DNA of 64,000 nt from Thermoanaerobaculia bacterium (GTDB lineage Bacteria; Acidobacteriota; Thermoanaerobaculia; Multivoradales; J023). This document shows, piece after piece, positions 5,805-24,149 of the stretch. The stretch's first letter is position 1. Each line of letters opens with the position of its first letter. The position numbers and the translations under genes were made by a program. The stretch is taken from positions 62,001 through 126,000 of the forward strand of contig JAUIJL010000003.1 in NCBI GenBank assembly GCA_030431255.1, written 5' to 3'. Under the pieces are notes generated by a model, which did not search any database, was not told where the DNA came from, and saw only the letters and a program-made list of their open reading frames with translations.

Positions 5805-5805
5805 A

Positions 5806-7215: not shown

Positions 7216-7561
7216 CTTGCGGTTGAGCTCCTTTCAACCATAAGTGTCGACACCGAAGCGGTTTCGGATGCAGACCTTTGGCAGATCATAACCTTTCCCC
7301 GATGCTCGGCGAGGTGGATCGACACCTTTTAACCCATGCTTCAAACCCTCCCGTGATCGATACCGCGTGGCTTTTTGAGTTGCGAGTGGAAATCGCACTC
7401 CATTCTTAGGCGCATCCGACGACCAATCCGAGGAACAAGAGGTGCATGAGGAGCAGGGGAGCGGATCCGATTTGTTTGGATCGGGGCAGGAAATCCCGTT
7501 GTGGATGGTTCGGGAGCGTTGCGAATAGACTGAGCCTACGAACCGACCCCTTGGAGCCGTG
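7216..7561. promoter_or_regulatory. Divergent intergenic region with a palindrome, candidate operator
   Basis: These 346 bases separate the RND operon (minus) from the yeh-type operon (plus) and should hold both promoters. A perfect 10-bp palindrome GTGTCGACAC is at 7244-7253, about 30 bp upstream of the adaptor start. A second, partial copy (GTGGATCGACACC, complement GGTGTCGA) is near 7313-7325. Closely placed copies upstream of a pump operon suggest a regulator site, but no regulator gene is adjacent. I see no convincing sigma-70 boxes and no open reading frame of interest. Confidence 0.3.
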
Positions 7562-10500
7562 ATGCGACGATTCGAGTACTGGGACACCAAGTCGAGCAAG
7601 TTTTGGCAAGTCGAGGTGGATGGGTTCGGCCTGACAGTCCGATTCGGCCGAATCGGAACGGAGGGCCAAACCAAGAGCAAGGCCTTCGACCATGCTGAAA
7701 AGGCTGCGACCGAGGCGGAAAAGCTGATTCGCCAAAAAATCCGAAAGGGTTACGTGGAAGTGGCTGCCGATGGTCCCGTGGCTGAAAGATTGCCCGAAAC
7801 TGAGGCTCAGGCCCAGCTAGCCGCTGAAAGAACTTCCACGAGCACGGAAGGAAAGGCTACGTCGACAGGTCCCGTATCGCCGTCTCCTGCTTCGCGAGCG
7901 ACAGGGTTGTCCGCGGCGGCGAATGAAGCAGAGGCCGAGGTCTTTGAATGGACCGATCGACTGTCAAAGCTCGCCTTTGCACGTACCGGTCAAACAGCGG
8001 GGTTCCGCCGTCCGAAATCGAAGAATAAATTGTGGCAGGGGATTCGCGCCTTCATGAGAATCCGGGCCGATGGGTTGAAGGAGACCCGAGCCCTTGAGGG
8101 CTCGGATCTTCAAGCTCTGGTAGACACCGCCCTTGAACGGTCACAACTCCTTGAGCCGCCGAAGAGCCCGGCGCCGGTGGAGGTTGAAGGGGCGATGATG
8201 GCGGTCGCTGCCCTGCGCTTCGACCACGAAGACACATGGAATCCGCTGCTGGACTTTTGGGTCACGGCCTTCGGGTTGGAAACGGCGCTCAGGGCGTTGG
8301 TCGCGAGCGCCCAGATGAAGCTGACGTTCAACCAGTCGGACCAAGAGCGCTTGCTGACGTGGGGTGGTCAAAACACGCTTGCCAAAGGGTTCGTCGACCC
8401 GTGGGCGCGGCTGCGGGAGCACTTGGCCCGAGCCGACACAGAAAATCAGCTTACGTTGCAGGAAGTCGCCGATGAGCTCCGGCGACACGATGATCAGGAA
8501 ACTCGGGTAGGTATCGCCTTTCTATTTCCCGACCGGCCGGACTGGGCGGAGCAAGAGTGGGTCGATGGGGCTGCCGGCGATTCCGTCTACGCTGCGCTTT
8601 TGGCGTGTTCGATGAATAATGCTGGGCTGGTTTGCGCCAGCGAAGAATTCCTGACCCAAGCACCGCTCGTCGGTGCGCGACTGGACGATCCACGGACCGT
8701 GGCAGTTTCGATCCTACAATCCAACGGACCCGACGTGGTCTCGAAGCTGGTTTCGGAGCTGCGAGCCTTCAAATATGGCGACACCCGGGCGGGTTTGGCG
8801 GAATGTCTTGCCTGCGTTCGTCGGCCCGAATCGATCGAGGCGCTGATCGAATATGTGGAGGAGCCAAAAGTCGCCTCCTTTCTTCAGCGTGTTTCGAGGT
8901 GGCATCCTACCGTTTCACTCGGGCCTCTGGCAGCGGCTACGGCGGCCGGTGGAAGACGATCTGAAGTTGCTGGTCGACTGCTCGCTGGGCTGCTTAGGCG
9001 GGAAGGCGATCGGCTCGCTCCACAGATCGAAGCCTTGTCGGATACCGAGCAAAAGGCGGTCAGAGAGTTGCTCGGGTCCATGGAGACCAGCGGAGAGGCT
9101 CCACTGGAGAGCTTGCCCGAGATCTTGACCCGTCCGCCTTGGGCCGAAAAGCGAAAGAAAGCCGAGTTTCCGACCCTGAAAGAGCTCCCGTTTCCGAAAT
9201 TCGAAGAGTTGGTGGATTGGCGTCCAGGGGAACGGGCGCAATGGCTCGCCGGAATGAGCCCTGAGCGCCCGAAGGCTCATCCTAGGCCCGCGGAATACTT
9301 CGACAACTATTTGCGCAGCAACTTCCTATTCCCCATGGGCATCGACGAGCTCACGGAGCTCGCCCGTGACCAGCCCGACGAGGCTCGTGAGGTGATCCGC
9401 CGGGCCGCGAGCAAAAAGATGAAGTCGCAGAAGGGGAGGAGCGATCAGCAATGGGGCGTGCCCCTGGAATACGTGCTCACCTTTCCGCCGACGGTCGCCA
9501 CGATGGTGTTGCAGGCATACCCGGTCGGCGTTTTTCGGGAGTCGACGTCTCTCGTTTACCAGAAGCTCGCCGCCGAGCACGGCTTCGACGCCCTGGACCA
9601 TTTGGTCGACGCGGCGGCACGCCATCCGCTCGAAGCCCTGCCGGCCTTGGCTCCCTTCCACAGTCTACGACCGGCCACGGCCGTGGTGGCGGCCCTGGGC
9701 AAGAGAAAGGGGCGGGCCGAGGCCCTGGCTTGGATCGAGCGCCGGCCCTTGGCGGCGGCGCTCGGCCTGCTGCACGTGGGCGTCGTCAACAACCGCAAGA
9801 CCCGCGACCTCGCCGTGGAAGGCCTACATGTTGCCCTGCGAAGGGCCGACCGCGAGGCCGTGGCGGCGGTGATCGACGGTGCCGACGAGCAATGGGGGGA
9901 TTCGGCTCGTAGCCTGTTGGCTTTCGATCCACGGGAGCTTTATCCCAGCAGGTTGCCTGCCAAACCCCCGTTTTGGCGGCCGGAGACTTTCTCCCGGCCC
10001 AGGCTCTCTCAATCCACGGTGGCCGGCGGCTCCGGCGTTCTGCCCGCCGAGGCGGTGGAGCACTTGGGCACCATGCTGAGCTTCACGCCGACCGATGTGG
10101 TCTACGCGGGAATTTTGGACGTGCTCGAAGCCTGTGATCGAGACTCCCTAGCGGCCTTTGCCTGGGACCTCTTCGAGGCTTGGAGAGAGGCCGGCATGCC
10201 GCCCAAGGAGGGGTGGGCCTTCACGGCTCTCGGCATTCTCGGCAACGACGACACCGCTCGCAAGCTCGCTCCGCTGCTTCGGGTTTGGCCCGGAGAGGGG
10301 GGCCACCAGCGGGCTGTGACCGGACTCGAGGTGCTGGCCCGCATCGGAACCGACCTGGCGCTGATGCATCTAAATGGGATCGCCCAGAAGCTCAAATTCA
10401 AGGGCCTCAAGGCGAAAGCCCGCGAGAAAATCACCGAAATTGCCGAGCGTCGAGGTCTGACCCGTGAGCAGCTGTCCGATCGCCTGGTGCCGACCTTGGG

Positions 10501-11422
10501 CCTCGATGCCCATGGCTCCGTCGACCTCGACTTCGGCCCGCGCTCGTTCCGAGTGGGTTTCGACGAGCAACTCAAACCCTTTGTGTGGGACGACGGTAAG
10601 CTCCGCGCCAACCTGCCCAAACCACGCAAAGACGACGATCCCGAGGCGGCCGAAGCGGCCACGGAGCGATTCAAAGCGCTCAAAAAGGACGTCCGAGCCC
10701 TGGGGAAGATCGAGCTCGCTCGTCTGGAGGGCGCCATGGTGCTGCGGCGTCGCTGGGCTTTAGCAGATTTTCGACGATTCCTTGTGGAGCATCCGCTGCT
10801 CCAGCACCTCGTGCGCCGTTTGGTTTGGGGTGTTTACGACGCCGAAGACACTCTGGTCGACGCCTTTCGAGTCGCTGAGGACGGCACCTTCGCCGACATC
10901 GACGACCAAGCCCTGGATCTGCCGGGCGGTGCGATCGTCGGCCTCGCCCATGCCCTTGAGCTGGGCGACGAGCGAAGCGTCGCCTTTGCCGAGATCTTGA
11001 GCGACTACGAGATCCTTCAACCCTTCCAGCAGCTCGGCCGGTCCGTCCATCGCCTGACCGACACCGAGCGCGAGTCCAAGACGTTGACCCGCTGGCAAGG
11101 GCGAATAGTGCCTTTCGGTCGAGTCTTGCAATTGGAAAAAAAGAATTGGATCCGGGGAGAGGCCCAAGACGCCGGCATCAGCTGGTGGTACGAGCGCCCA
11201 GTGGGCGATCGGGGCGAGCTATCGATTTTTCTTTACCTCGATCCCGGCATTTTCACCGGCATGGCCGGCGAGTCCGGAGATCAAACCCTACGAGAGGTAC
11301 AGGTCGGCCGCGCTGGAGAAGCGGAATCCAGGTCGAGAGTCGCCTTCTCAGAGCTCGACGAGGTGTCCGCCAGCGAAATGATCCGAGATTTAGAAAACGT
11401 GGTGTCCGAGGAGGTGAAATAG
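7562..11422 (+). CDS. WGR and DUF4132 domain protein, copy 1 (YehI-like)
   Basis: A 1286-aa cytoplasmic protein. Residues 1-70 form a WGR domain (MRRFEYWDTKSSKFWQ...), with the signature triad here FGR (residues 28-30). WGR domains are known from PARPs and bacterial proteins as nucleic-acid or protein interaction modules. A low-complexity Ala/Ser/Thr/Glu linker follows (75-130), then a long helical repeat-like region. The C-terminal DUF4132 core lies at roughly 1040-1220 (LARLEGAMVLRRRW, FLVEHPLLQHLVRRLVWGVYD). This WGR-DUF4132 architecture is that of E. coli YehI. The ATG at 7562 (GGAG upstream) is preferred to the GTG at 7559. It heads the operon, ending 4 bp before the MoxR ATPase gene. 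Function unknown; the second copy lies at the far end of the block. Confidence 0.85.
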   Translation: MRRFEYWDTKSSKFWQVEVDGFGLTVRFGRIGTEGQTKSKAFDHAEKAATEAEKLIRQKIRKGYVEVAADGPVAERLPETEAQAQLAAERTSTSTEGKATSTGPVSPSPASRATGLSAAANEAEAEVFEWTDRLSKLAFARTGQTAGFRRPKSKNKLWQGIRAFMRIRADGLKETRALEGSDLQALVDTALERSQLLEPPKSPAPVEVEGAMMAVAALRFDHEDTWNPLLDFWVTAFGLETALRALVASAQMKLTFNQSDQERLLTWGGQNTLAKGFVDPWARLREHLARADTENQLTLQEVADELRRHDDQETRVGIAFLFPDRPDWAEQEWVDGAAGDSVYAALLACSMNNAGLVCASEEFLTQAPLVGARLDDPRTVAVSILQSNGPDVVSKLVSELRAFKYGDTRAGLAECLACVRRPESIEALIEYVEEPKVASFLQRVSRWHPTVSLGPLAAATAAGGRRSEVAGRLLAGLLRREGDRLAPQIEALSDTEQKAVRELLGSMETSGEAPLESLPEILTRPPWAEKRKKAEFPTLKELPFPKFEELVDWRPGERAQWLAGMSPERPKAHPRPAEYFDNYLRSNFLFPMGIDELTELARDQPDEAREVIRRAASKKMKSQKGRSDQQWGVPLEYVLTFPPTVATMVLQAYPVGVFRESTSLVYQKLAAEHGFDALDHLVDAAARHPLEALPALAPFHSLRPATAVVAALGKRKGRAEALAWIERRPLAAALGLLHVGVVNNRKTRDLAVEGLHVALRRADREAVAAVIDGADEQWGDSARSLLAFDPRELYPSRLPAKPPFWRPETFSRPRLSQSTVAGGSGVLPAEAVEHLGTMLSFTPTDVVYAGILDVLEACDRDSLAAFAWDLFEAWREAGMPPKEGWAFTALGILGNDDTARKLAPLLRVWPGEGGHQRAVTGLEVLARIGTDLALMHLNGIAQKLKFKGLKAKAREKITEIAERRGLTREQLSDRLVPTLGLDAHGSVDLDFGPRSFRVGFDEQLKPFVWDDGKLRANLPKPRKDDDPEAAEAATERFKALKKDVRALGKIELARLEGAMVLRRRWALADFRRFLVEHPLLQHLVRRLVWGVYDAEDTLVDAFRVAEDGTFADIDDQALDLPGGAIVGLAHALELGDERSVAFAEILSDYEILQPFQQLGRSVHRLTDTERESKTLTRWQGRIVPFGRVLQLEKKNWIRGEAQDAGISWWYERPVGDRGELSIFLYLDPGIFTGMAGESGDQTLREVQVGRAGEAESRSRVAFSELDEVSASEMIRDLENVVSEEVK

Positions 11423-11426
11423 GGCC

Positions 11427-12518
11427 ATGAGCGATCATTCTCCCAAGCTCCAGCGCCCGCCCGCGGAGGAGCTCTACGCCGGCGAGCTGGAAAGATTGCG
11501 CGAAACGGACAAGGCGGATCGACCGCCGGGCTGGTCTCTATCGCTGCAGGCGGCCCGCTCCTTTGTGCTCGGTGACGACGAGCTCGAAGTGCGGAGCAAA
11601 ATCGTCTGCTCGCCGTCGTTGATCGATCGCTGCTTGGTGACCTTGGCGACCAGCCGCGGCTTGCTCCTGGTGGGCGAGCCCGGCACGGCGAAGTCGTTGC
11701 TCTCGGAGCTGATCGCCGCCGCCGTCTCGGGCACCTCCACGCTCACCATCCAGGGCAGCGCTGCGGTGACCGAGGATCAGATCAAGTACGCGTGGAATTA
11801 CGCTCTGCTGGTGAACGAAGGGCCGAGTCTCCGCGCCCTGGTGCCCGCTCCCCTCTACCTCGGCTTGCGCGACGGCCGGCTGGTGCGCTTCGAAGAAATC
11901 ACCCGCTGCCCGCCGGAGGTTCAAGACACACTGCTATCCGTGCTTTCCGACCGGGTGTTGGCGATTCCGGAGCTAGAGGGGCAAGACGGCATGCTGTTCG
12001 CCCGTGAGGGATTCAACATCATCGCGACCGCCAATACCCGCGACCGTGGGGTCAACGAGATGTCCTCCGCGCTCAAGCGTCGATTCAATTTTGAAACCGT
12101 GTTTCCGATCGCCGACTTCGAGCGGGAGCTCGAGCTTGTGCGGGCGGAGAGCACACGGCTGCTGGAGCGCTCCGGCGTGCCCCGTGCTTTGCCCGACGAT
12201 GTGTTGGAGGTGTTGGTCGCGGCGTTTCGGGATCTGCGAGGGCAGGGGGTGGAGGAGAGCGAGGTGGATCGCCTTTCGACGGTCATGTCCACCGCCGAGG
12301 CCGTGTCCGTGGCCCACGCGGCCGGCGTGCGGGGGCATTTCCTGCGCGGCGGCCCCGCCCGGCCCGAAGACATCGTCGAATGCCTGGTGGGCACGGCGGT
12401 TAAGGATCAAGCGGACGATCTCAAGAAGCTGCGGCGGTATCTCGAGCAACGGGCGAAGAGACGAAGTGGGGAGGCGTGGAAGGCCTTCTACCAAGCACGG
12501 CATCTACTTCCCGGGTAA
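11427..12518 (+). CDS. MoxR-family AAA+ ATPase (YehL-like)
   Basis: A 363-aa AAA+ ATPase of the MoxR type. Walker A is GEPGTAKS (residues 83-90). The Walker B region is RLVRFEEI (151-158), with the acidic pair EE in place of DE. Sensor 1 is IIATANT (198-204), and the arginine-finger/sensor region is SALKRRFNF (214-222). MoxR proteins are thought to act as chaperones that remodel or activate partner complexes, usually with a VWA protein, and a VWA gene lies two genes downstream. The ATG at 11427 follows the WGR-DUF4132 stop by 4 bp. Synteny with DUF5682, VWA and SWIM genes places it in the YehL subfamily rather than the classical MoxR or RavA groups. Confidence 0.9.
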   Translation: MSDHSPKLQRPPAEELYAGELERLRETDKADRPPGWSLSLQAARSFVLGDDELEVRSKIVCSPSLIDRCLVTLATSRGLLLVGEPGTAKSLLSELIAAAVSGTSTLTIQGSAAVTEDQIKYAWNYALLVNEGPSLRALVPAPLYLGLRDGRLVRFEEITRCPPEVQDTLLSVLSDRVLAIPELEGQDGMLFAREGFNIIATANTRDRGVNEMSSALKRRFNFETVFPIADFERELELVRAESTRLLERSGVPRALPDDVLEVLVAAFRDLRGQGVEESEVDRLSTVMSTAEAVSVAHAAGVRGHFLRGGPARPEDIVECLVGTAVKDQADDLKKLRRYLEQRAKRRSGEAWKAFYQARHLLPG

Positions 12519-12536
12519 TTTCGCCGGGATCCTTCG

Positions 12537-14984
12537 ATGAGCACGTCCGTCGCCAGAATTGCCAGAGCTGCCGAGGCTGCCGGTCCACACGTGGTCGGCG
12601 TGCGCCACCACAGCCCGGCGTGCGCGCGTTTGGTGCGGGAGACCATTCGCCGCGTGCGTCCGCGGCATGTGCTGATCGAGGGACCGTGCGATTTCAACCC
12701 TCGGCTCGACGAGCTGCGTCTCGACCACCAGCTGCCGATCGCCGTCTTCTCCTACTTGCACAGCGATGCATTTCGGCACGCGGCGTGGGCACCGTTTTGC
12801 GAGTATTCTCCGGAATGGATCGCCCTCGAAACCGCCCGAGAGGTGGACGCCGAAGCGCGTTTCTGCGATCTGCCCTCATGGCACGAGTGCTTCCGAGATC
12901 TGCGCAATCGATATGCCGACCGGCGGGGAGACGACCACCGGCGACACGCCGAATCCTACGTCGACCAGCTGTGCGCAAGGTTCTCCGTGGACGATTCCGA
13001 CAGCCTGTGGGACCACCTCTTCGAGCAGCCCATGCCCACGGACGAGCTCGGCCGGCGGTTGGCCACCTACTTCGAGCATCTGCGCGACCATCGTCCGCCG
13101 GCGGAGACCGACGAGCCCCGGGAGCGATTCATGGCCCAAGCCGTGGCGTGGGCCGTAGCCGACGCCGCGCCCGAGTCGGTGGTTGTGGTCTGCGGCGGCT
13201 ATCACGCTCCGGTCCTCGCTCGGGCATGGCGGGAGCATGAGCCCGACTCGGATTTTCCGTCCGTTGAGCCGCCGCCGGGCGCCGACTGCCACAGCTATCT
13301 GGTGCCCTACAGCTACAAACGACTCGACGCCTTTGCCGGCTACCAATCGGGCATGCCGTCTCCGGCGTTCTATGAAGAGCTTTGGCGGACGGGCCCGGAG
13401 GTCGCGGGCTCCCGCGCCGTGGAGTGGGTGGTAGGCCGGTTGAGGGCCAAGAAGCAGCGGCTTTCCACCGCGGATTTGATCGCCGCCGACGCCATGACCC
13501 GAGGGCTCGCCCGGTTGCGCGGGAGAACCCAGCCGTGCCGCGTCGACGTGCTCGACGGCTTGGCCGGCGCGCTGCTGAAAGACGGACTCGACGCGCCCAT
13601 GCCCTGGGCTCGGCGAGGAGCGTTGATGCCCCACACTCACCCCCTGCTGGTGGAAATGGTCAAGGCTCTTTCCGGTGATCGGCGCGGGCGGCTCGACCCA
13701 CGCACCCCCCAGCCACCTCTTTTAGTGAATGTGCAACAGATATTGGATGAGCTGGACCTGAGCCCCGGCGAGCGTGTGGGAGCCGAGCGTCGGGTAGAGC
13801 TGGATCTGCTCGATCCCTTCGATCGCCGCCGCAGCCGGGCCCTTCACCGGCTGGCGATCCTCCGCATTCCCGGCTTTGATCGCCTCACCGGCCCCGAGCA
13901 AGCCGGCGATGTTGTGCTCCATGAAACGTGGCGCCTACGCCGCGTGCTCCACGCCGAGGTCGCGGTGATCGAGGCGTCTAGCTGGGGGCCGACCTTGGCC
14001 GCCGCCTGCGCGGGCCGCTTGGAAAATCGGCTCGCCGAAGCCGAGAGCCTGGGTGAGCAAGCGGATCTGCTCACGGCGTCGGTCTTCGCCGGTCTGGACG
14101 CCTTGGCCGAGCGTTGTTTGGAGGTGGTCTCGCGGTGCATCGACCGGGAGCCCGCATTCGGCGAGCTCGGCCGAGCAACCCGTCGGTTCTTTGATTTGTG
14201 GCGGCATGACGGCGTGTTCGCGGATCTACGGCGCGCCGCCCTGCCGAGCTTGCAAGACGTGTTGGACCGCTGCGTGGACCGCGGTCTGTGGCTGCTCGAG
14301 GGCCTCCATGGCGGCGCGGCACCGGCCGATCCGCTTGACCTCGAAGCCTTGGCAACCCTGCGTGACGTGGTGTCGAAACGCTCCACGACTCGGTCGCAAA
14401 ACGCGCCGGCGGTGTTTTCCCGTCGCGCCCTCGATCCTGAAGCGCCCCCGGCCATCCGGGGTGGTTGCCTCGGTGCCCTGTGGAGCCTGCAAGATGGGTC
14501 GCCGACACCGGCGTGGTCGACTCCTTCCGGCGAGCCACCGGAACGATTGGCGCTGCGGGGCCTGCGGACGGTGCGCCGGGATCTCTTGGGCGAATTCCTG
14601 GCCGGCCTTTTCGCCTTGGCCCGGGAAGCGTCGTTGCGCAGCGAGCCCTTGCTGGAAGCCCTCGATGCGACCCTCGCCGAGCTCGAAGACGAGACGTTCC
14701 TCGTCGCCCTGCCCGCCCTGCGTCTCGCTTTCTCCTATTTTCCGCCCCTGGAGCGTGAGGTGCTGGCCCGCTTCGTCTCGGCCCGCCACGGAGATCCTTC
14801 GGCGGCCGGCGTCCGAGATCTGCTGCGTGTATCCACCTCCCCGGTGGATTTCGCCGCCGGCAGCCGGCTAGATGCGCGAGTCGCCGAGGTGGCTCAACGT
14901 TACGGCTTGTCCGACTCGCTCGACGACCCTGCCCCCGATGCTTCCGAGCCCGGTGGCCCCGGTGATCCGGAGACCTTGCCGTGA
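12537..14984 (+). CDS. DUF5682 family protein (YehM-like)
   Basis: An 815-aa soluble protein of unknown activity, assigned to DUF5682 by its N-terminal signature GVRHHSPACARLV followed by a beta strand and IEGPCDF (about residues 20-60), and by its place between MoxR and VWA genes as in E. coli yehM. A further conserved-looking element, VVVVCGGYHAPVLARAW, is near residue 220. The His-rich N-terminal element, the IEGP strand and the later GGYH recall the layout of TraB/TIKI-like metal-dependent proteins; this is only a weak inference. The C-terminal half is Leu/Ala/Arg-rich, probably helical repeats. It starts 18 bp after the ATPase gene and overlaps the next gene by 4 bases (GTGA), so translation is probably coupled. 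Confidence 0.8.
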   Translation: MSTSVARIARAAEAAGPHVVGVRHHSPACARLVRETIRRVRPRHVLIEGPCDFNPRLDELRLDHQLPIAVFSYLHSDAFRHAAWAPFCEYSPEWIALETAREVDAEARFCDLPSWHECFRDLRNRYADRRGDDHRRHAESYVDQLCARFSVDDSDSLWDHLFEQPMPTDELGRRLATYFEHLRDHRPPAETDEPRERFMAQAVAWAVADAAPESVVVVCGGYHAPVLARAWREHEPDSDFPSVEPPPGADCHSYLVPYSYKRLDAFAGYQSGMPSPAFYEELWRTGPEVAGSRAVEWVVGRLRAKKQRLSTADLIAADAMTRGLARLRGRTQPCRVDVLDGLAGALLKDGLDAPMPWARRGALMPHTHPLLVEMVKALSGDRRGRLDPRTPQPPLLVNVQQILDELDLSPGERVGAERRVELDLLDPFDRRRSRALHRLAILRIPGFDRLTGPEQAGDVVLHETWRLRRVLHAEVAVIEASSWGPTLAAACAGRLENRLAEAESLGEQADLLTASVFAGLDALAERCLEVVSRCIDREPAFGELGRATRRFFDLWRHDGVFADLRRAALPSLQDVLDRCVDRGLWLLEGLHGGAAPADPLDLEALATLRDVVSKRSTTRSQNAPAVFSRRALDPEAPPAIRGGCLGALWSLQDGSPTPAWSTPSGEPPERLALRGLRTVRRDLLGEFLAGLFALAREASLRSEPLLEALDATLAELEDETFLVALPALRLAFSYFPPLEREVLARFVSARHGDPSAAGVRDLLRVSTSPVDFAAGSRLDARVAEVAQRYGLSDSLDDPAPDASEPGGPGDPETLP

Positions 14985-16105
14985 GCCCCCGACTCGACAT
15001 CAAGCAACGCTGGCGGTTGCTGCTAGGGCGGTCCGCGGAAGGTTGCCTCGGGGAGGGGGAAGGCCACATCGCGGCCATGGACGCGGCCCTCGAATGGCTC
15101 TACGATCGGGATGAGGCCCTCGACCAGCGCGACATCGCTCGGCGTGGCGGTGACGAGCCCAGCGCGCTGAGCGTGCCCGATTGGATCGATCAGATCCACG
15201 AGCTTTTTCCGAAAGAAACCATCGAGCGCTTGGAGCGGGATGCGGTCGAGACTTTCGGCCTCGCGGAGGTGGTCACGCACCCGGAGGCCCTTGAGCGGGT
15301 AGAGCCCAATCCCAACTTGCTGCGGGCGATTCTGCGCACCAAACACCTGATGAATCCCGACGTGCTCGAAGCCGCACGGAGGTTGGTGCGGGAGGTCGTC
15401 CGTCAGCTGATGGAGAAGCTCGCCAGGGAGATCCGCAGCGCCTTCTACGGCACACCGAGCCGACGACGACGCAGCCCCTATCCGCTAGCTCGCAATCTGG
15501 ATCTACCGCGCACCTTGCGGGAGAACCTCCGCCATTGGGATCCCGAGCGCCGCAAGCTCTACTTGGAAAAACCGTTCTTCTTCAGCCGGGTCAAGCGCCA
15601 CACGGATAGATGGCAGATCGTGCTCTTGGTCGACCAAAGCGGCTCCATGGTCGACTCGGTGATCCACAGCTCGATCACCGCCGCCTGCTTGTGGAAGTTG
15701 CCGGGCATGCGCACCCATCTGGTGGCCTTCGACACCTCGTTGGTCGATCTCACCCGCGATGTCGACGACCCCGTAGAGCTGTTGATGAAAGTGCAGCTGG
15801 GGGGCGGCACCGACATCGGAAAGGCGGTGGAATACGGCGCGAGCCTACTGGAAGTGCCGGCGCGCTCGATTCTCGTGCTGATCACCGACTTTTATGAGGG
15901 CGTCCATGTCCAGCCACTGGTCAGCCGAGTGGCGGCCCTGCGAGGCCAAGGCACCCTGGTGCTCGGCCTGGCGGCCCTCGACGAAAACGCCGAGCCCCAA
16001 TACAACCGGGAGCTTGCCCAGCGCCTGGTGGAGGCCGGAGCAGAGGTCGGGGCCATGACCCCCGGCGAGCTGGCTTGTTGGATTGCCGAGAAGGTGGGGG
16101 GCTGA
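14981..16105 (+). CDS. VWA domain protein, MoxR partner (YehP-like)
   Basis: A 374-aa protein with a C-terminal von Willebrand A domain. The MIDAS metal site is complete: DQSGS (residues 218-222), the Thr of GGGTD (274-278), and ITDF (301-304). The N-terminal half (1-205) is a charged helical region. VWA proteins next to MoxR ATPases generally act as the metal-dependent adaptor that recruits targets. The GTG start at 14981 overlaps the previous stop codon (GTGA) and the next gene starts 1 bp after its stop, so these proteins are probably made in fixed ratio. It corresponds to E. coli yehP. Confidence 0.88.
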   Translation: MSPRLDIKQRWRLLLGRSAEGCLGEGEGHIAAMDAALEWLYDRDEALDQRDIARRGGDEPSALSVPDWIDQIHELFPKETIERLERDAVETFGLAEVVTHPEALERVEPNPNLLRAILRTKHLMNPDVLEAARRLVREVVRQLMEKLAREIRSAFYGTPSRRRRSPYPLARNLDLPRTLRENLRHWDPERRKLYLEKPFFFSRVKRHTDRWQIVLLVDQSGSMVDSVIHSSITAACLWKLPGMRTHLVAFDTSLVDLTRDVDDPVELLMKVQLGGGTDIGKAVEYGASLLEVPARSILVLITDFYEGVHVQPLVSRVAALRGQGTLVLGLAALDENAEPQYNRELAQRLVEAGAEVGAMTPGELACWIAEKVGG

Positions 16106-16106
16106 G

Positions 16107-18212
16107 GTGGCGCGACACGACCTGCTGGCCCTCAACGCCGACAAGGTGGCGGTGCTCTCGAATCGCGGTCTGGTGAAACGGGCGGCCAAGGAGCTGTCCG
16201 CCGGCAAAGGCCCCGAGCTGCGGGAGGAGGTCGACGGCACCGTGGTCGGTACCTTTGCAGACGGCACCGAAGCGCGCCTTCCTCCCGGTGTCGCCTTGGC
16301 CGACGCTCCCTGCACGTGCGCGGCTCCACCCCACAAGGCGTGTCGGCATCGGGTGGCGGTGGTCTTGGCCTACCTACGGCAAGTGGGGCCGGCCGACGGC
16401 GAAGCGCCCAGCGACGAGCCCGACGAACCCAAAGAATCCGACGAGCCTCACGAGCCCAAGGAACCTAAAGGGCCCGCGGCCACGAGCGACTCGTTTCCAC
16501 CGTCGCCCGGAGCGCGTTGGTCGCCGGGCACCCTCGACGACACGGCTCTTGAGCGTTTTCTCGGTCGCGCGGTGATCGCCGGCGCCCGGCGCCGACGAAA
16601 GCGGGGCGTGACCGTGGAGATCCGGCGGGCTGAGGGCCCCGACCTTGCAGGCTCCGAAACCGGCGATGTGCCCACGGCCCGGTTGCCCACCTGTACCGTG
16701 CGTTTCCTGGTGCCCGGCGAGCTCGCCATGGCCCGCTGTGATTGCCGCGCGATCCACGGCTGTGAGCATCTGGCCTTGGCGGTGTGGGCTTTCCGAGCAG
16801 CGGATCGCATCGACCCCGAAGCCGACCAGCGGATCGTCGATCCCAAGATCCTCGACCTCGAGGAGGTTGCCGTGTCGTCGCGTTCTGCTGCCGGCTCGGG
16901 AGGTCTCGCGGCTCGGGCGGCCATCGAAGAGCTGCTGCTCTGCGGCCTGGCGGAATCGTCCCATGATCTCGCCCAACGCTTCGCCGTCGCTCGCCGGACT
17001 TTGAGCTCGGAGCGCGATGCCTGGCCGATGGTGGTGCTCGGGGAGATCGAGGGGCAGATCGATGCTTGGAACCGCCGTAGCGCCCTTTTCAACGATCCAC
17101 GGCTGACGGCTTTGGCGGTGGAGCTGTACGCCCGTTATCGCGCGGCGGAGCGGGGAGGCGCCCTGCCGGCGAGCCATATCCTAGGCCGTGGCGAGCCCGC
17201 CCGCACAGAGCTCAAACACGTGGCGCTTACGGGCCTGGGTGCCCGTGTCTTGGTGGACGGCGAGGGACGCGTCGCGCGCTTCCTGCTGGCCGACTTCAAA
17301 ACCGGCGATGTGCTGGTGCTCACCCGTCGCTGGAAGTCGAGCCAAGCCGTCGGCTTCGACATCGGCCGTCGCGGCTTCGCCGACGGCACCCTTCACACCC
17401 TGGCCGGCGGTCGTACCGTCAGCCAGGTGGCGTCCCGCATGGTCAACCGAGCGGTGCTCATCGGTCGGCGGAAAGGGGGCACCTCGGTAATGCCCCAGAC
17501 CGGCGCCTCCTGGGCCGATTTGCCGGCTCCCTTGAAGGTCGAGCGGGTGGTCGACCTGGCCCGTCATACCGCCTCCCGTCCACCGGCCTTCCTGCGACCC
17601 CACCTTCTGGGGGAAGACGTGCATGTGCTCAGGATTGCGGAGATTGTGGATGCCTTTTACGACCCGGCTCGGCAGGCGGTGATCGCCGAAGCCCTCGATG
17701 CCGCCGGTGAGCTGTTCCGCATCGGTCTCGAGCATCGGGCCGTCACACCCCACGCCCTCGACGCCCTCGGCCACGCGCTCACCCGCGATCCCAGCTGGGT
17801 CGCCGGCCCCGTCCGCCGCTATGGTTCGACCTTTGAGGTCGAGCCCACCGCCCTGGTGGTGCCGGGCGAGGTGATCGTTCCCGACCTGGCCGGTCCGACG
17901 AATGAAGCCCCCCTGGACATTCGCCCGACGGCCGATCCCAAGAATCGCTTGGACCAAGCCCTCGGCCAAGCCCTATCCACCCTACAAGAAGCTCCACATC
18001 GAGGCCTGCAACTCCTGCCCGAAACCTGGTCACAGCGTGCTCGCCAAGCCGCCGACGAGCTCCAGGAGCTGGGCCTCAACGGCTGCGCCCAGCGCCTGAG
18101 AGCCTGCGCCGACGCCGTCGTCACGGGCTCGTCTCGGGGAGAGTGGCGGCTGGCCTGTGAAGCCTGGACCGACGCCACGCTCCGTCTTTTGCTGGCCCAA
18201 GAGCTGCGATGA
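16107..18212 (+). CDS. SWIM zinc-finger protein with two SWIM motifs (YehQ-like)
   Basis: A 701-aa protein with two CxCx(n)CxH SWIM-type zinc motifs: Cys69, Cys71, Cys79, His81 (CTC...CRH) and Cys211, Cys213, Cys219, His221 (CDC...CEH). An acidic Pro/Glu-rich linker (about 95-125) separates them. SWIM domains are known as DNA- or protein-binding zinc modules. The remaining 450 residues, including a probable beta-rich segment near 360-470, match no domain I know outside YehQ-like proteins. I chose the GTG at 16107, one base after the VWA stop, over an in-frame ATG at 16083 that would overlap the VWA gene by 23 bp; the true start could be either. E. coli yehQ is the syntenic counterpart. Confidence 0.82.
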   Translation: MARHDLLALNADKVAVLSNRGLVKRAAKELSAGKGPELREEVDGTVVGTFADGTEARLPPGVALADAPCTCAAPPHKACRHRVAVVLAYLRQVGPADGEAPSDEPDEPKESDEPHEPKEPKGPAATSDSFPPSPGARWSPGTLDDTALERFLGRAVIAGARRRRKRGVTVEIRRAEGPDLAGSETGDVPTARLPTCTVRFLVPGELAMARCDCRAIHGCEHLALAVWAFRAADRIDPEADQRIVDPKILDLEEVAVSSRSAAGSGGLAARAAIEELLLCGLAESSHDLAQRFAVARRTLSSERDAWPMVVLGEIEGQIDAWNRRSALFNDPRLTALAVELYARYRAAERGGALPASHILGRGEPARTELKHVALTGLGARVLVDGEGRVARFLLADFKTGDVLVLTRRWKSSQAVGFDIGRRGFADGTLHTLAGGRTVSQVASRMVNRAVLIGRRKGGTSVMPQTGASWADLPAPLKVERVVDLARHTASRPPAFLRPHLLGEDVHVLRIAEIVDAFYDPARQAVIAEALDAAGELFRIGLEHRAVTPHALDALGHALTRDPSWVAGPVRRYGSTFEVEPTALVVPGEVIVPDLAGPTNEAPLDIRPTADPKNRLDQALGQALSTLQEAPHRGLQLLPETWSQRARQAADELQELGLNGCAQRLRACADAVVTGSSRGEWRLACEAWTDATLRLLLAQELR

Positions 18213-18238
18213 GCGACGGCATTCGGTGCCTTTCGCTC
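18211..18238 (+). terminator. Stem-loop between the SWIM gene and WGR-DUF4132 copy 2
   Basis: Outer stem GAGCGA / TCGCTC (18211-18216 with 18233-18238) encloses an inner GGCA-TTCGG-TGCC hairpin. No T-run follows, so it may be a weak terminator, an RNA processing site, or an mRNA-stabilising element that sets lower expression of the last gene. Confidence 0.35.
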
Positions 18239-18323
18239 GTCGTCCATGGATAGATCAGATAGCATCTGAGCACACATCCAGACGTCAGGAAGCTTTTCAC
18301 GGGTGGTGTTTGAGGGAGCGCTC

Positions 18324-21300
18324 ATGCGGCGATTCGAATATCGTGACGACAAGTCGGAAAAGTTTTGGCATATCGATGTCCAGGGAGCCGAATTTACGGT
18401 TTCTTATGGCCGCATCGGCACGAACGGTCAAAGCAAGACAAAAACCTTTTCCGATGCAGACAAGGCCCAAGCCGAGGCTGAGAAGCTGATTCGGCAGAAA
18501 ACCCGCAAAGGTTATGAAGAGGTGGGGCAGGGAAGCGCTCCGACCGAGCCCAGCAGTGCCTCGATGGCGCCGTCGGCCGATCGCGCAGCTCGTGGAAAGG
18601 ACTCCGAGTCGAAAAGCCTCGGGTCGCAGACTCGGCCATCGGCTGAAAGAAGCACTGCGAGGCCCGCACCTCGACCACGGGAGGCCTCTGGAACGAGGTT
18701 CGAGGAGGTCTTCCATTGGACCGCCCGCATGCGCAAGCTGCGATTTGCCCGTCCTGGACAGGTCGAGGGGATACAAAAGCCAAAGTCGCTGAACAAGCTG
18801 TGGGCTGAGATCAGAGGGTGTTTAGCCGACCGAGCGGAGGCTCTCGAGGGGAAGGATGTGTTCGCCGATCCCCATCTACAAGCCGCCGTGGATGAGGCTT
18901 TTGCCCGATCCCGGCAGATTGAGCCGCCGGAAGGTCCGGCTTCATTGCAAGTCGAAGCCGCGACGATGATCTTGATGGACTTCTTGCACTACGGGGGTGA
19001 ATTCATCTCCACACCTCGCTGGCCGGTGGTGGACTTCTGGCTCGCTCTTGGAGGTTTTCGTACGGCCTTGAGCGCTACGATCGCCACAGAAGAAGCCAGA
19101 GTCCAGATCAAGATTCCCGGCATCGCTGAAGACTACTTGGCTTCACGAAAGCTTGAGCACGGGTACCTCGGCGCTTGGCTCCGCCTGCGAGAACGTCTCG
19201 CCATGGCCGAGGATTCGGTCCGGCTTCAGGCTCGCGAAATTGCGGCGGAGCTGCGGCAGGAAGCGAGCCCAGAGGTGCGTATCGGCCTCGCCTTCGCTTT
19301 TCCCGACATTCCAGAGTGGGCGGAAGAAGAGTGGCGACCCGAGCTGAGCCCGATTCATGCCGCCATCTTGGCGTGCTCCACGGCCAACGCCGAGCTCGTA
19401 TGCTCTTTTGGCCCCACTATTACCGAACACTGGCTGGTCGGGTTCCACAGGCATGAGCGGTTTTCTTCCGACCTTTCGATCTTGGAGGCCAACGGGCCAG
19501 AGGTCCTGCCGGTCGCCGTGATGAGAATGCGAGCCCTTGGAGAGGACAGCGAGTATGCAGTGGGATTGGCGAAGGTCCTGGCTCGTGTCCGTCATCCCGT
19601 GGCGATCACCGCCCTTCTCGAGCACTCCGGTGCCCCGAAGATCGCCGATATCCTGTCCGAGGCGTTAGATCGTTACCCCGAAGAGGCCTTGTCCATCTTG
19701 GTCGGGCAACTGGACGGAGAAAGCGGTCGTTCCGATGCCGCTCGCCGGTGGCTCACCACCTTGCTCGCTCGCCACGCCGATCACCTGGGTCCGGCCATCG
19801 AGTCCTTGTCCGATGGCGAGCGGAAGCTTGTGAACGAGGTTCTCGATGCGGTGAGCACTGTTCCTGAGGCTCCGGCGGACGCTCTACCGGAGATCTTGGT
19901 CCGCCCACCGTGGCTCGGGCAATCGTCCGGGCTCCAAATCCCTTTCGTTGAGGATCTGTCCCTGCCCGACTTTGAAGACTCCATGCAATGGCGTACCGGA
20001 GAGCGGGTTGAGTGGTCTTGTGGTGGTGCTGTCGAAGCCAACCCAGACACCTATCATAATGCGAGATTCGAGCTGCCTATCTCTCCGTCTCAGCTTCAGG
20101 ACATGACTCCAGACGAGGCCCGAGACGTCATCCGTCGCACCGCGGAAAAGATCGAGGCGGACCATTGGCTCTCCATAGAGATATTGTTGTCTTGGCCTCG
20201 GCACCTCATTTCAATGTTTCTCCAGCACTACCCTCCCGGGGTGTTCGGGAGCGAAGACACGCCTTGTTACCAAAAGCTGGCGGCGGACTTCGGATTGGAG
20301 GCCTTACCCGGCCTCGTAGCGTCGGCGATGAGCAGCCCCGCACGGGTCCTGCCGTCCCTGGGTCCCTATCAAAGCCTGCGCCCAGCCGTGGCCGTTGCGA
20401 CCGCCCTCAGTCGAAAGCCGGTCCGAGCGTCCGCTCGCGCTTGGATCGAGCGTCAGCCCTTGGCCGCCGCCGTGGGTTTGCTTCATGTGGCGATGGCCCA
20501 CGCGGATGAAAAGACCCGTCACTTCGCCGCCGAAGGAGCTAGGCTCGCCCTTCGCCATACGGAGCTGCAAACCGTGATCGATGCCGGGGACGTCAGTTGG
20601 AAGCAGGCCGTCGAAGGCTTCGTGGCGGTAGATCCGCGGTTTCAACATCCCGAAGCGCTACCGGAGCTTCCTTTCTTCTGGCGGCCGGAGCATTTCACTC
20701 GACCGCAGCTGAAGGACGGCTCGGGCGCTCTGCCGTCGAGCACCCTCCAGCACTTGGGCCACATGCTCGCCTTCTCCCCGCCCGATCTGCCTTATCCCGG
20801 CTTGGTCGACACGCTCGAGGCCTGCGACCGGGATTCGCTGGCGGGCTTTGCTTGGGATCTCTTCGAGGCATGGAAAAACGCCGGCATGCCGGCCAAAGAG
20901 AATTGGGTGTTCACGGCCCTCTCGGTGTTCGGCAACGACGAGACCGCCAGAAGGCTCACACCACTTCTGAAAATCTGGCCGGGCGAGGGCGGTCATCAAC
21001 GAGCGGTGATCGGTCTCGATGTGCTCTCTCTCATCGGTAGCGATGTGGCTCTGATGCACCTCAACGGAATTGCTCAGAAAGTTAAGTTCCAGGGCCTCCG
21101 TCAAAGAGCCCGGGAAAAGATCGCGGAAATCGCGGCTCGCCGCGGGCTGAGCCAGGAAGAGCTGGCGGATCGCTTGGTGCCGGATTTGGGTCTCGACGCC
21201 GGCGGCACCCTGGAGCTCAGCTTTGGGTCGCGCTCCTTTCGGGTGGGTTTCGACGAGCAGCTCAAACCCTTCGTGCGCGGAGATGACGGCAAGCAGAGGG

Positions 21301-22127
21301 CGAATCTGCCGAAACCGCGAAAGGACGACGATCCCGAATCCGCCAAGGCCGCCTCAGCCCGATACAAAGCGCTCAAAAAAGACGTGCGCGCGTTGGCCGG
21401 TCTCGAGCTGATCCGCCTCGAAAGGGCGATGTGCGGGCAACGCCGTTGGCGGCTCGAGGACTTCAAGCAGTTCCTGGTCGAGCACCCTTTGCTGGGTCAC
21501 TTGGTGCGGCGTCTCGTCTGGGGTCGCTACGACGCTGAGGGTGAGCTCTTGGATGCCTTCCGGGTCGCGGAGGACGGCTCCTTCGCCGACGCCGGCGATG
21601 AGGAGCTGGTGCTGTCGGAAGGAACCCTGATCGGCATCGCTCATCCCGTGGAGTTGGGCGCCGAACGGCTGGCCGCCTTCGGCGAGATCCTGGCGGATTA
21701 CGAGATCCTCCAGCCTTTTCCCCAGCTTGAGCGCAAGGTCTCCCAGCTGACCGCCGAAGAGCGACAGGCCATGGTGCTCACCCGATGGAAAGGGCAAGAC
21801 GTGCCGTTCGGTCGGGTGCTGAAATTGGAAAAACTGGGCTGGATTCGAGGAGCTCCCCAAGATGGGGGCTATTGTTATTGGTACGAACGCCCGGTCAACG
21901 AGCAGATGAGGCTTTATCTCTACATCGAGCCCGGAATCCGCATCGGCGATGTAGATGCTTGGGAAGAGCAAACCGTGTACGTGGTTGAAATCGACCGCCC
22001 CGAATATGTTCCGACGGGAATCAACGACAGCAACCAATCCGACTCGGGCATCCCTTTCTCCGCGCTCGACGACATCACCATCAGCGAAATGCTTCGCGAG
22101 CTCGAGGTGCTGTCTGAAACCCCTTAG
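18324..22127 (+). CDS. WGR and DUF4132 domain protein, copy 2 (YehI-like paralog)
   Basis: A 1267-aa paralog of the gene at 7562. Residues 1-70 are a WGR domain with triad YGR (28-30), followed by a low-complexity linker, a helical middle, and DUF4132 at about 1015-1200. The two copies share long identical stretches at the C-terminal end (for example FDEQLKPFV, NLPKPRKDDDPE, FLVEHPLL, HLVRRLVWG) but differ much more in the middle, which points to a duplication followed by divergence of the variable part. The ATG at 18324 (GGGAG upstream) aligns with copy 1 and is preferred to GTG 18303. It is separated from the SWIM gene by 111 bp with a stem-loop, so it may have its own promoter. It is convergent with the next gene, only 6 bp away. 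Confidence 0.84.
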   Translation: MRRFEYRDDKSEKFWHIDVQGAEFTVSYGRIGTNGQSKTKTFSDADKAQAEAEKLIRQKTRKGYEEVGQGSAPTEPSSASMAPSADRAARGKDSESKSLGSQTRPSAERSTARPAPRPREASGTRFEEVFHWTARMRKLRFARPGQVEGIQKPKSLNKLWAEIRGCLADRAEALEGKDVFADPHLQAAVDEAFARSRQIEPPEGPASLQVEAATMILMDFLHYGGEFISTPRWPVVDFWLALGGFRTALSATIATEEARVQIKIPGIAEDYLASRKLEHGYLGAWLRLRERLAMAEDSVRLQAREIAAELRQEASPEVRIGLAFAFPDIPEWAEEEWRPELSPIHAAILACSTANAELVCSFGPTITEHWLVGFHRHERFSSDLSILEANGPEVLPVAVMRMRALGEDSEYAVGLAKVLARVRHPVAITALLEHSGAPKIADILSEALDRYPEEALSILVGQLDGESGRSDAARRWLTTLLARHADHLGPAIESLSDGERKLVNEVLDAVSTVPEAPADALPEILVRPPWLGQSSGLQIPFVEDLSLPDFEDSMQWRTGERVEWSCGGAVEANPDTYHNARFELPISPSQLQDMTPDEARDVIRRTAEKIEADHWLSIEILLSWPRHLISMFLQHYPPGVFGSEDTPCYQKLAADFGLEALPGLVASAMSSPARVLPSLGPYQSLRPAVAVATALSRKPVRASARAWIERQPLAAAVGLLHVAMAHADEKTRHFAAEGARLALRHTELQTVIDAGDVSWKQAVEGFVAVDPRFQHPEALPELPFFWRPEHFTRPQLKDGSGALPSSTLQHLGHMLAFSPPDLPYPGLVDTLEACDRDSLAGFAWDLFEAWKNAGMPAKENWVFTALSVFGNDETARRLTPLLKIWPGEGGHQRAVIGLDVLSLIGSDVALMHLNGIAQKVKFQGLRQRAREKIAEIAARRGLSQEELADRLVPDLGLDAGGTLELSFGSRSFRVGFDEQLKPFVRGDDGKQRANLPKPRKDDDPESAKAASARYKALKKDVRALAGLELIRLERAMCGQRRWRLEDFKQFLVEHPLLGHLVRRLVWGRYDAEGELLDAFRVAEDGSFADAGDEELVLSEGTLIGIAHPVELGAERLAAFGEILADYEILQPFPQLERKVSQLTAEERQAMVLTRWKGQDVPFGRVLKLEKLGWIRGAPQDGGYCYWYERPVNEQMRLYLYIEPGIRIGDVDAWEEQTVYVVEIDRPEYVPTGINDSNQSDSGIPFSALDDITISEMLRELEVLSETP

Positions 22128-23954: not shown

Positions 23955-24003
23955 GATGCTGTTGCCTTTCGCGTTGAATTCAAAAAGAGCAGGGCTCACC
24001 GCA

Positions 24004-24050: not shown

Positions 24051-24090
24051 CTCGCGAAGACTCCGCCGCCCTAAACCGCGGGAGGTGTAT

Positions 24091-24110: not shown

Positions 24111-24149
24111 GCGCAGAATTGGCGTCAGTTTTTCCGTCTAGGAATTGAT

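What the first reader, a model, noticed from the sequence alone, without database searches (positions are those of the whole stretch)
7562..22127. yeh-type MoxR/VWA/SWIM/DUF5682 operon bracketed by two WGR-DUF4132 paralogs
Seen: six plus-strand genes, WGR-DUF4132, MoxR AAA+, DUF5682, VWA, double SWIM, WGR-DUF4132, with 4-bp overlaps or tiny gaps between the inner ones. Known: E. coli carries yehI, yehL, yehM, yehP and yehQ with the same domain content, and their function is not settled. Inference: one machine in which a MoxR chaperone and its VWA partner act with putative nucleic-acid-binding (WGR, SWIM) proteins; having two YehI-like copies suggests specialised roles or a heteromeric complex.
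Basis: partly seen in the sequence, partly recalled or inferred. Interest (0 to 1): 0.75.

Follow-up and report, generated by a model that had tools for sequence, protein, structure and literature searches.

The report
Yeh-type chaperone operon with TraB-like subunit
This is a far relative of an uncharacterised but nearly universal E. coli gene cluster (yehI-L-M-P-Q): an ATP-driven chaperone pair encoded with a protein that looks like a TraB/Tiki-family hydrolase and with proteins that carry candidate DNA-binding domains, which gives that old mystery cluster a testable mechanism.

Summary
In detail: six plus-strand genes, WGR-DUF4132, MoxR, DUF5682, VWA_CoxE, double SWIM, WGR-DUF4132, window 7559-22127. 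MoxR-DUF5682-VWA-SWIM corresponds to E. coli yehL-M-P-Q (64/38/59/29% identity). Of 68 fully flanked related loci, 67 carry all five families, and MoxR-DUF5682-VWA-SWIM keeps its order in all 68. Two DUF4132 copies are not special: 30 of 68 loci have two or more ORFs, an E. coli strain has three, and the two window copies are sisters (local duplication). The bracketing layout was seen in none of the 68. New here: the N-terminal domain of DUF5682 is TraB/Tiki-like (profile-profile 95.9%, E 6e-9; predicted structure; conserved H...E...GxxH), followed by a helical solenoid; DUF5682 is fused to VWA in one genome; and in 198 sampled actinobacteria DUF5682 lies beside DUF5691 (16 of 26 loci) or DUF4132 (8 of 26), never both, so the solenoid partner is interchangeable. 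Published DNA-damage control of E. coli molR (LexA) and of a Deinococcus DUF4132 protein (DdrO) points to genotoxic stress, but no such signal was found at the window's own promoter. Best reading: a MoxR/VWA machine that works a TraB-like hydrolase. The mechanism is inferred, not shown.

The parts
7559..11422 (+). WGR1: N-terminal WGR and C-terminal DUF4132, helical repeats between by analogy with WGR2 (ATG at 7562)
   Evidence: Pfam; 49% identical to WGR2; sister of WGR2, 100/100
11427..12518 (+). MoxR AAA+ ATPase, YehL-like; Walker A GEPGTAKS, Walker-B-like LVRFEEITR, sensor-1-like TANTRD (motif names recalled)
   Evidence: Pfam; 64% identical to YehL over 362 aa; motifs
12537..14984 (+). 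DUF5682 (YehM-like): residues ~18-260 TraB/Tiki-superfamily domain with G21xRH24, E48, G220GxH223; residues ~490-765 helical HEAT-like solenoid
   Evidence: Pfam; model pLDDT 90.8; hhalign to TraB 95.9%, E 5.8e-9, controls; motif conservation
14981..16105 (+). VWA_CoxE protein (YehP-like) with MIDAS-type residues DQSGS, GGGTD, TDFYE
   Evidence: Pfam; 59% identical to YehP; motifs
16107..18212 (+). double-SWIM protein (YehQ-like); alternative TTG start 16083; CTCAAPPHKACRH and CDCRAIHGCEH
   Evidence: 28.8% identical to YehQ over 601 aa, E 2e-57; motifs; no Pfam hit
18303..22127 (+). WGR2: WGR + helical solenoid + DUF4132 (ATG at 18324 is the likelier start)
   Evidence: Pfam; model of residues 130-1274, pLDDT 88.2
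18213..18302 (+). spacer before WGR2, the only long gap in the unit; holds a short palindrome TCAGATAGCATCTGA of no shown function (such palindromes are expected by chance at about this rate, own estimate)
   Evidence: the scan lists no site here, but it covers sigma-70 consensus and simple terminators only

Best explanation
A yeh-type remodelling machine. Shown by sequence: a MoxR AAA+ ATPase and a VWA (MIDAS) protein are encoded with a TraB/Tiki-fold protein on a helical solenoid (DUF5682), a SWIM zinc-finger protein and one or more DUF4132 proteins (here with WGR), as one conserved unit. Inferred: MoxR forms an ATP-driven ring that pulls or twists the VWA protein; the VWA protein holds DUF5682 (they are fused in one genome), so that ATP hydrolysis opens, loads or resets the TraB-like hydrolase; SWIM and WGR-DUF4132 proteins act as adaptors that choose where the machine works, most likely at damaged or exposed nucleic acid. 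The DUF4132 copies are adaptors multiplied by repeated local duplication; the two in the window arose that way. Physiological setting (weakest step): recovery from genotoxic stress.
For: Conserved unit: 67 of 68 fully flanked loci hold all five families, and MoxR-DUF5682-VWA-SWIM order holds in all 68 if split ORFs count as one. DUF5682-VWA fusion in L029. Partner swap: of 26 DUF5682 loci in 198 actinobacteria, 16 have DUF5691 and 8 DUF4132 within 10 kb, none both, 2 (weak partial matches) neither; 16 of 16 DUF5691 matches over the cut-off sit by DUF5682. TraB/Tiki: hhalign 95.9%, 233 columns, score 68.5 against at most 22.9 in 30 column shuffles and 19.4 reversed; the two of 50 listed structure matches that cover residues 11-235 (7w5z_E Z 9.0, rmsd 5.1, 187 aligned; 8b6h_DQ Z 8.8, rmsd 4.8, 180 aligned) are one and the same protein, named 'TraB family protein'; GxRH, E48 and GGxH are invariant in 62 of 62 aligned DUF5682, and the His, Glu and GxxH also hold in 14 of 14 of a set that includes DUF5691-type and other distant members, at places that the alignment pairs with TraB's; in the Tiki protease VvRRSP two His and two Glu are needed for activity (PMC6254334 passages). 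MIDAS and ATPase motifs intact. VWA proteins worked by MoxR rings: PMC13036017 passages. Genotoxic link: E. coli molR listed as LexA-regulated (PMC11039860, PMC4576408 passages); D. radiodurans DUF4132 protein DRA0166 and WGR protein DR2173 rise after mitomycin C in an IrrE-dependent way (PMC8533742 passages).
Against: No activity or interaction was measured. VvRRSP has a Glu two residues before its first His (E3900, H3902); DUF5682 has Val or Ile there in 62 of 62, so catalysis may be lost or altered. The window's DUF5682 alone matches neither TraB nor ChaN in Pfam; only 13 of 62 members touch ChaN and 2 TraB, weakly. hhalign to ChaN proteins failed (0.2%), though TraB against ChaN also failed (18.9%). 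Not every DUF5682 has the partners: L030 shows no MoxR or VWA match, L031 no VWA match, and in L026 VWA is on the other strand. No general SOS box lies at the operon start in 80 loci; the operon's upstream region shares only short words with the genome's own lexA/recA promoters; the E. coli box has one mismatch and such sites are not clearly enriched in that stretch (13 seen, 7.85 expected, 6 of 100 shuffles reach 13); Edaphovirga has none just upstream. WGR and SWIM binding to nucleic acid is recalled family knowledge, not tested. Only 36 of 68 loci have a detected WGR.
Confidence: 0.5

Rival explanations
1. Assembly chaperone without catalysis: the TraB-like domain is a non-enzymatic docking module and the machine only builds or takes apart a nucleoprotein or other complex.
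For: MoxR/VWA pairs studied so far mature or remodel complexes (passages of PMC3893208; PMC13036017); the solved TraB match is a subunit of Tetrahymena complex IV; Val/Ile stands where VvRRSP has its first catalytic Glu.
Against: His24, Glu48 and His223 are invariant in 62 of 62 and hold in 14 of 14 of a set with distant members, which a pure scaffold would not obviously need.
Confidence: 0.25
2. Conflict (anti-phage) system with a chaperone-gated effector, like the MoxR-vWA ternary systems of Kaur et al. 2020.
For: Same chaperone logic (PMC7159879 passages); patchy across phyla (DUF4132 in 4 of 297 and DUF5682 over cut-off in 7 of 297 genomes of the window's phylum, its own included); weak PADLOC match of WGR2 to WGR_XIII through its WGR domain only.
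Against: Almost fixed in E. coli: yehL-Q covered at 80% or more in 5162 of 5426 genomes. DUF5682 relatives in 1 of 50,697 phage and 36 of 72,556 plasmid records. No flanking family shared by more than 6 of 80 loci (flanking families were not named, so defence genes among them were not looked for one by one). Five of six proteins have no PADLOC match at E 0.01. bpMoxR model scores 18.8, under its cut-off of 27.
Confidence: 0.13
3. Metal-cofactor insertion chaperone, e.g. for molybdoenzymes (as CoxD/CoxE or NorQ/NorD).
For: The VWA protein belongs to VWA_CoxE; the E. coli WGR protein MolR is said to be perhaps involved in molybdate regulation (PMC8533742 passage).
Against: No flanking family recurs in more than 6 of 80 loci (families not named); the Deinococcus study saw no change of moeA/moeB. 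In the window the Pfam-named neighbours are an RND efflux pair and a multicopper oxidase, on the other strand.
Confidence: 0.12

Closest known systems
E. coli yehI-(K)-L-M-P-Q cluster with yehF/yehH (molR region)
   Same: Same five families, same order, 64/38/59/29% identity for L/M/P/Q, DUF4132 directly upstream; further DUF4132 genes or remnants beside yehI
   Different: Here both DUF4132 proteins have WGR (K-12 YehI shows none), one copy lies downstream of the SWIM gene, no yehK; the window pair is a separate duplication
SWIM-DUF5691-MoxR-DUF5682-VWA (second variant found here)
   Same: Same MoxR, DUF5682, VWA and SWIM parts; a helical-repeat gene sits just before MoxR
   Different: DUF5691 replaces DUF4132 and SWIM comes first; no detectable DUF5691-DUF4132 homology (2.7%); MoxR 43-45% identical in L024-L028
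TraB/PrgY/Tiki superfamily (TraB family protein of Tetrahymena complex IV; VvRRSP; ChaN)
   Different: Fused to a helical solenoid and encoded with a MoxR/VWA pair; Val/Ile in place of the first Glu of VvRRSP; no profile match to ChaN
RavA-ViaA and NorQ-NorD
   Same: MoxR ATPase with MIDAS-bearing VWA partner
   Different: Closest to YehL, which the literature puts in another MoxR subfamily (PMC3893208 passages); three extra conserved subunits and no known client
MoxR-vWA ternary conflict systems (Kaur et al. 2020)
   Same: MoxR plus vWA plus further subunits, possible gated effector
   Different: No beta-propeller/VMAP match among the six proteins; bpMoxR below cut-off; near-fixed in E. coli

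Membership tests
yeh-type operon (E. coli yehI-L-M-P-Q) | all five families adjacent, order DUF4132-MoxR-DUF5682-VWA-SWIM | tested here: met
   an extra DUF4132 copy follows SWIM
YehL subfamily of MoxR | closest to YehL among MoxR subfamilies | tested here: inconclusive
   64% identity to YehL and YehL-type neighbours; no tree against the other six published subfamilies was made
MoxR/VWA pair | intact ATPase motifs and MIDAS DxSxS-T-D | tested here: met
   MIDAS definition PMC13036017 passages
TraB/Tiki superfamily (DUF5682 N-domain) | fold/profile similarity over the whole domain | tested here: met
   but the ChaN profile comparison is negative and single-protein Pfam hits are weak (13 of 62 ChaN, 2 of 62 TraB, best E 0.026, none for the window's own protein)
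TraB/Tiki superfamily (DUF5682 N-domain) | two GxxH motifs and a Glu on strand 2 | tested here: met
   62 of 62 rows; in a set with distant members His, Glu and second GxxH hold in 14 of 14, first Gly in 12 of 14 (Pro in L030, L031); the motif definition is recalled, supported in part
TraB/Tiki superfamily (DUF5682 N-domain) | full 2His/2Glu catalytic set as in VvRRSP | tested here: not met
   Val/Ile22 at the place of the first Glu in 62 of 62; the TraB proteins of A4 have Thr there in 7 of 7, so this does not decide fold membership
TraB/Tiki superfamily (DUF5682 N-domain) | hydrolase activity | not testable with these tools
   needs bench work
MoxR-vWA-beta-propeller ternary conflict system | bpMoxR over cut-off and a beta-propeller/VMAP partner | tested here: not met
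   18.8 bits against 27; no such domain among the six proteins at E 0.01
known defence systems (PADLOC 2023) | match to system proteins | tested here: not met
   only WGR2, E 3e-5, through WGR
SOS/LexA regulon | LexA-type site before the operon | tested here: inconclusive
   none of the patterns tried and nothing clear shared with own lexA/recA promoters; the true box of this organism is unknown

The most novel reading that the evidence does not exclude
The yeh cluster, present in most E. coli, encodes an ATP-gated TraB/Tiki-type hydrolase (probably a protease) that WGR- and SWIM-bearing adaptors bring to damaged or exposed DNA: a chaperone-driven proteolytic DNA-damage machine unlike Lon, Clp or SprT-type proteases, with swappable solenoid adaptors (DUF4132 or DUF5691).
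Probability: 0.2. Interest if true: 0.85.

Novelty: new member of a known kind. Interest (0 to 1): 0.56.

Why it matters
The yehL-Q cluster is carried by about 95% of complete E. coli genomes (5162 of 5426), yet no account of its function turned up in the listings of the held library or in the passages opened. Assigning DUF5682 to the TraB/Tiki superfamily names residues to mutate, the fusion and partner-swap data say who should bind whom, and two unrelated DNA-damage regulons give a first condition to test.

Tried and rejected
Rejected or led nowhere. (1) A general SOS box before the operon: GAACN4GTTC and CTGTN8ACAG scans of 80 loci gave 27 and 8 matches in 1.58 Mb, none at the operon's start; the pair in L094 lies before a lexA-like gene (recognised by eye) nearby. 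(2) A LexA box of the window's organism from its own lexA and recA promoters: both share GACTTACGCC, absent from the operon's upstream region. (3) Sequence search of the PDB with DUF5682 gave only ATP-synthase stalk proteins at E 0.39 or weaker. (4) Foldseek with whole DUF5682 gave nothing at E 0.001 or better; with WGR2 it gave helical-repeat proteins, best 9.4e-5 but with low TM-scores. (5) C-terminal DUF4132 domain: among the 50 rows shown only YugN (2r5x_B, Z 7.5, rmsd 3.4, 103 aligned of 118) lies wholly in it; below the level to trust, and the domain was not folded alone. (6) DUF5691 and DUF4132 as homologues: 2.7%. (7) Conserved flanking genes: largest shared family in 6 of 80 loci; the families were not named. 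(8) Sigma-70 and terminator scans at chance level. (9) Phage copies of the DUF4132 domain: no match. (10) PMC5087735 was opened for molR; one of its two hits was the MOLREP program and the other its reference. (11) Passages of PMC6442406 (strain list with a yehQ deletion, outcome not seen), PMC3589462 (yehP among down-regulated genes in simulated microgravity) and PMC11674859 (a Leptospira LRR protein with WGR and DUF4132) gave no function.

Limits. In the genome searches only part of the candidates per genome was scored (at most 3, 5, 16, 7), so counts may be low; G327 shows 18 DUF4132 matches but 16. Two DUF5682 pieces of G388 were counted as one locus. Twelve of 80 loci with short flanks were dropped before the count. 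DUF4132 copies there are ORFs of 250 aa or more, so split genes inflate and the 10-kb edge deflates the count. A strict pattern found the first SWIM motif in 73 of 73 and both in 21 of 73 trimmed proteins. The window's phylum (Acidobacteriota) is inferred because genome G026, same order, has the same contig and matches as L081, a MAG titled Holophagales.
Full report
What is there. Six plus-strand genes, window 7559-22127, encode WGR-DUF4132, a MoxR AAA+ ATPase, DUF5682, a VWA_CoxE protein, a double-SWIM protein and a second WGR-DUF4132. The first five are packed (gaps of 4 and 18 bp, a 4-bp overlap, then a 1-bp gap or a 23-bp overlap by choice of start); the sixth starts 90-111 bp further on. 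Pfam does not see SWIM in gene 5 even at E 10, but two CxCx(n)CxH motifs are present and it is 28.8% identical to E. coli YehQ over 601 residues. Walker A, a FEE Walker-B-like motif, sensor-1-like TANTRD and the MIDAS-type residues are in place. The genome has no other DUF4132 match.

Kinship with E. coli. In MG1655 the order is yehF, yehH (pseudogene), yehI, yehK, yehL, yehM, yehP, yehQ. MoxR, DUF5682, VWA and SWIM are 64, 38, 59 and 29% identical to YehL, YehM, YehP and YehQ; both window DUF4132 proteins are 37% identical to YehI over their C-terminal ~610 residues, and their WGR parts match YehF. K-12 looks reduced: E. coli AF60 has three full-length DUF4132 genes in a row before yehL, though there yehL and yehM are annotated as broken. 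The yehL-Q stretch is covered at 80% or more in 5162 of 5426 complete E. coli genomes, and a 161-bp stretch with the yehF promoter and start in 5349 of 5426.

How conserved is the unit. A genome scan with the window/E. coli MoxR alignment gave 80 best loci, among them Actinomycetota, beta- and gammaproteobacteria, Myxococcota and Acidobacteriota. Of the 68 with full 10-kb flanks, 67 carry all five families and all 68 have MoxR, DUF5682, VWA, SWIM in that order if split ORFs are counted once; 30 of 68 have two or more DUF4132 ORFs; 36 of 68 have a WGR domain. DUF4132 lies downstream in two (L088 same strand, L107 opposite), and on both sides in none, so the window's bracketing layout is rare. 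These loci were picked for similarity, so a less biased test was made: in 198 evenly drawn genomes of the Actinomadura phylum there are 26 DUF5682 loci; 16 have DUF5691 and 8 have DUF4132 within 10 kb, none has both, 2 weak ones have neither; 16 of 16 DUF5691 matches over the cut-off, and 10 of 28 DUF4132 matches over the cut-off, lie near DUF5682. DUF4132 therefore also leads a life of its own. In the window's own phylum the complete unit is rare: DUF4132 in 4 of 297 and DUF5682 over the cut-off in 7 of 297 sampled genomes, the window's included, and by the listed coordinates the two lie within 10 kb only in the window's genome; a same-order genome, G026, has a copy with two DUF4132 genes.

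A second variant, and exceptions. Loci L025 and L027 read SWIM, DUF5691, MoxR, DUF5682, VWA; L024 (contig end) and L028 show DUF5691 with part of the rest. DUF5691 and DUF4132 show no profile homology (2.7%), but DUF5691 of L027 has weak, below-cut-off HEAT matches, the WGR2 model is a helical solenoid whose best folds are HEAT-type proteins, and both genes come right before MoxR. In L029 DUF5682 and VWA_CoxE are one 1223-residue protein, direct evidence that these two act together. Exceptions: L030 has DUF5682 without a MoxR or VWA match, L031 MoxR and DUF5682 without VWA, L026 has VWA on the opposite strand, and the DUF4132 genes of L033-L035 stand without the other families (BLAST at 1e-4 with window and E. 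coli queries, so distant partners may be missed).

The DUF5682 subunit. AlphaFold2 on 62 sequences gave a model of mean pLDDT 90.8: an alpha/beta N-terminal domain, a middle region and a helical solenoid (490-765). Of the 50 structure matches shown, two cover residues 11-235: 7w5z_E (Z 9.0, rmsd 5.1, 187 aligned) and 8b6h_DQ (Z 8.8, rmsd 4.8, 180 aligned). They are one protein in two entries, the 'TraB family protein' of Tetrahymena complex IV, which a profile of TraB proteins from the window's relatives also finds (E 9.7e-10). Z near 9 is modest by itself, so sequence profiles were compared: the DUF5682 N-domain against TraB gives 95.9%, E 5.8e-9, 233 columns, with GVRHHS on GTAHVS, the EG/EL pair and GGYH on GAGH aligned. 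The same comparison with TraB columns shuffled 30 times scores at most 22.9 against 68.5, reversed 19.4; against MoxR 1.0%. The ChaN comparison fails (0.2%), as TraB against ChaN does (18.9%). Scanned singly, 13 of 62 members touch Pfam's ChaN and 2 of 62 TraB, at E 0.026 or weaker, and the window's own protein neither. G21, R23, H24, E48, G220, G221 and H223 are invariant in 62 of 62. In a wider set of 14 with DUF5691-type and other distant members, H24, E48, the RE pair at 195-196 and GxxH at 220-223 hold in 14 of 14, while G21 is Pro in two and G221 is Ala in six. In the Tiki protease VvRRSP a 2His/2Glu set is needed for activity (PMC6254334, passages); DUF5682 keeps two His and one Glu but has Val or Ile where the other Glu would be. 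Fold membership is well supported; activity is not shown. No paper in the held library holds the word DUF5682.

The two WGR-DUF4132 genes. They are 49% identical, and a maximum-likelihood tree of 60 DUF4132 regions joins them at 100/100; the paired copies of L081, L065, L070 and L074 also join locally, whereas those of L044, L045, L103 and L112 do not, so some duplications are older. Duplication has thus happened many times; nothing here shows that the copies differ in role. Both rows keep the 34 columns invariant in all 59 aligned sequences.

Setting. E. coli molR is listed as LexA-regulated in PMC11039860 and, from RegulonDB, in PMC4576408 (passages); a one-mismatch LexA-type box ends 9 bp before yehF (that molR is the yehF/yehH gene is recalled). 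In Deinococcus radiodurans the DUF4132 protein DRA0166 and the WGR protein DR2173 accumulate after mitomycin C only if IrrE is present, and DdrO sites are listed for dr2173 and for the drA0165-drA0166 operon (PMC8533742, passages). Two unrelated damage regulators thus command WGR/DUF4132 genes. Against generality: no SOS boxes at the operon start in 80 loci, none just upstream in Edaphovirga, and none recognised in the window. Whether the Deinococcus gene belongs to a full unit was not checked.

Mechanism. From studied pairs, a MoxR hexamer works a VWA protein through its pore and linker (PMC13036017 passages). With the DUF5682-VWA fusion, the simplest reading is MoxR -> VWA -> DUF5682, i.e. 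ATP-driven opening or loading of a TraB-like hydrolase, with SWIM and WGR-DUF4132 as adaptors. The first step rests on homology, the second on one fusion and constant neighbourhood, the third on recalled family knowledge of WGR and SWIM. A defence role is less likely: the cluster is almost fixed in E. coli, nearly absent from phages (1 of 50,697) and rare on plasmids (36 of 72,556, some of them chromosome-sized records). A molybdenum role rests mainly on the name molR.

Verdict. A genuine, broadly conserved but functionally open system; the window copy is a new member of the E. coli yeh kind with an unusual bracketed layout. The gain is the TraB/Tiki assignment, the exchangeable solenoid partner, and the correction that multiple DUF4132 copies are common. 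On checking, two facts were mended that leave the odds as they were: the residue that replaces the first catalytic Glu is Val/Ile22, not Arg23, and the two structure matches are the same protein.

Noticed in passing
window 35356-56286 (-): One open frame of 6976 codons: VWA, SdrD_B, glucodextranase-B and Ig-like domains, an RHS repeat and, near its C-terminal end, an XOO_2897-like deaminase domain; looks like a giant polymorphic-toxin-type surface protein.
   Followed up: partly
window 57271-63963 (-): 2230-codon ORF beside it with no Pfam match at E 1e-10.
   Followed up: no
window 22134-23999 (-) and 24090-25100 (+): Two long ORFs next to the operon without any Pfam match at E 0.001.
   Followed up: no
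window 2682-7215 (-): RND efflux pump and membrane-fusion protein, divergent from the operon.
   Followed up: no
G000:C45:56919-57575 (L142): A TraB/PrgY family gene lies about 4.4 kb before the window's start in the same contig, about 12 kb before the operon; probably coincidence.
   Followed up: no
L094:328-1020: In Massilia atriviolacea a lexA-like gene (by eye) with tandem SOS boxes lies about 1.5 kb before the DUF4132-MoxR operon.
   Followed up: partly
G327 (genome of L040): Actinomadura genome with 18 DUF4132 matches; of the 16 seen only 2 lie near DUF5682: a large stand-alone DUF4132 family.
   Followed up: no
L154:24395-27762: E. coli AF60 has three unbroken DUF4132 genes but yehL and yehM annotated as broken.
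   Followed up: no
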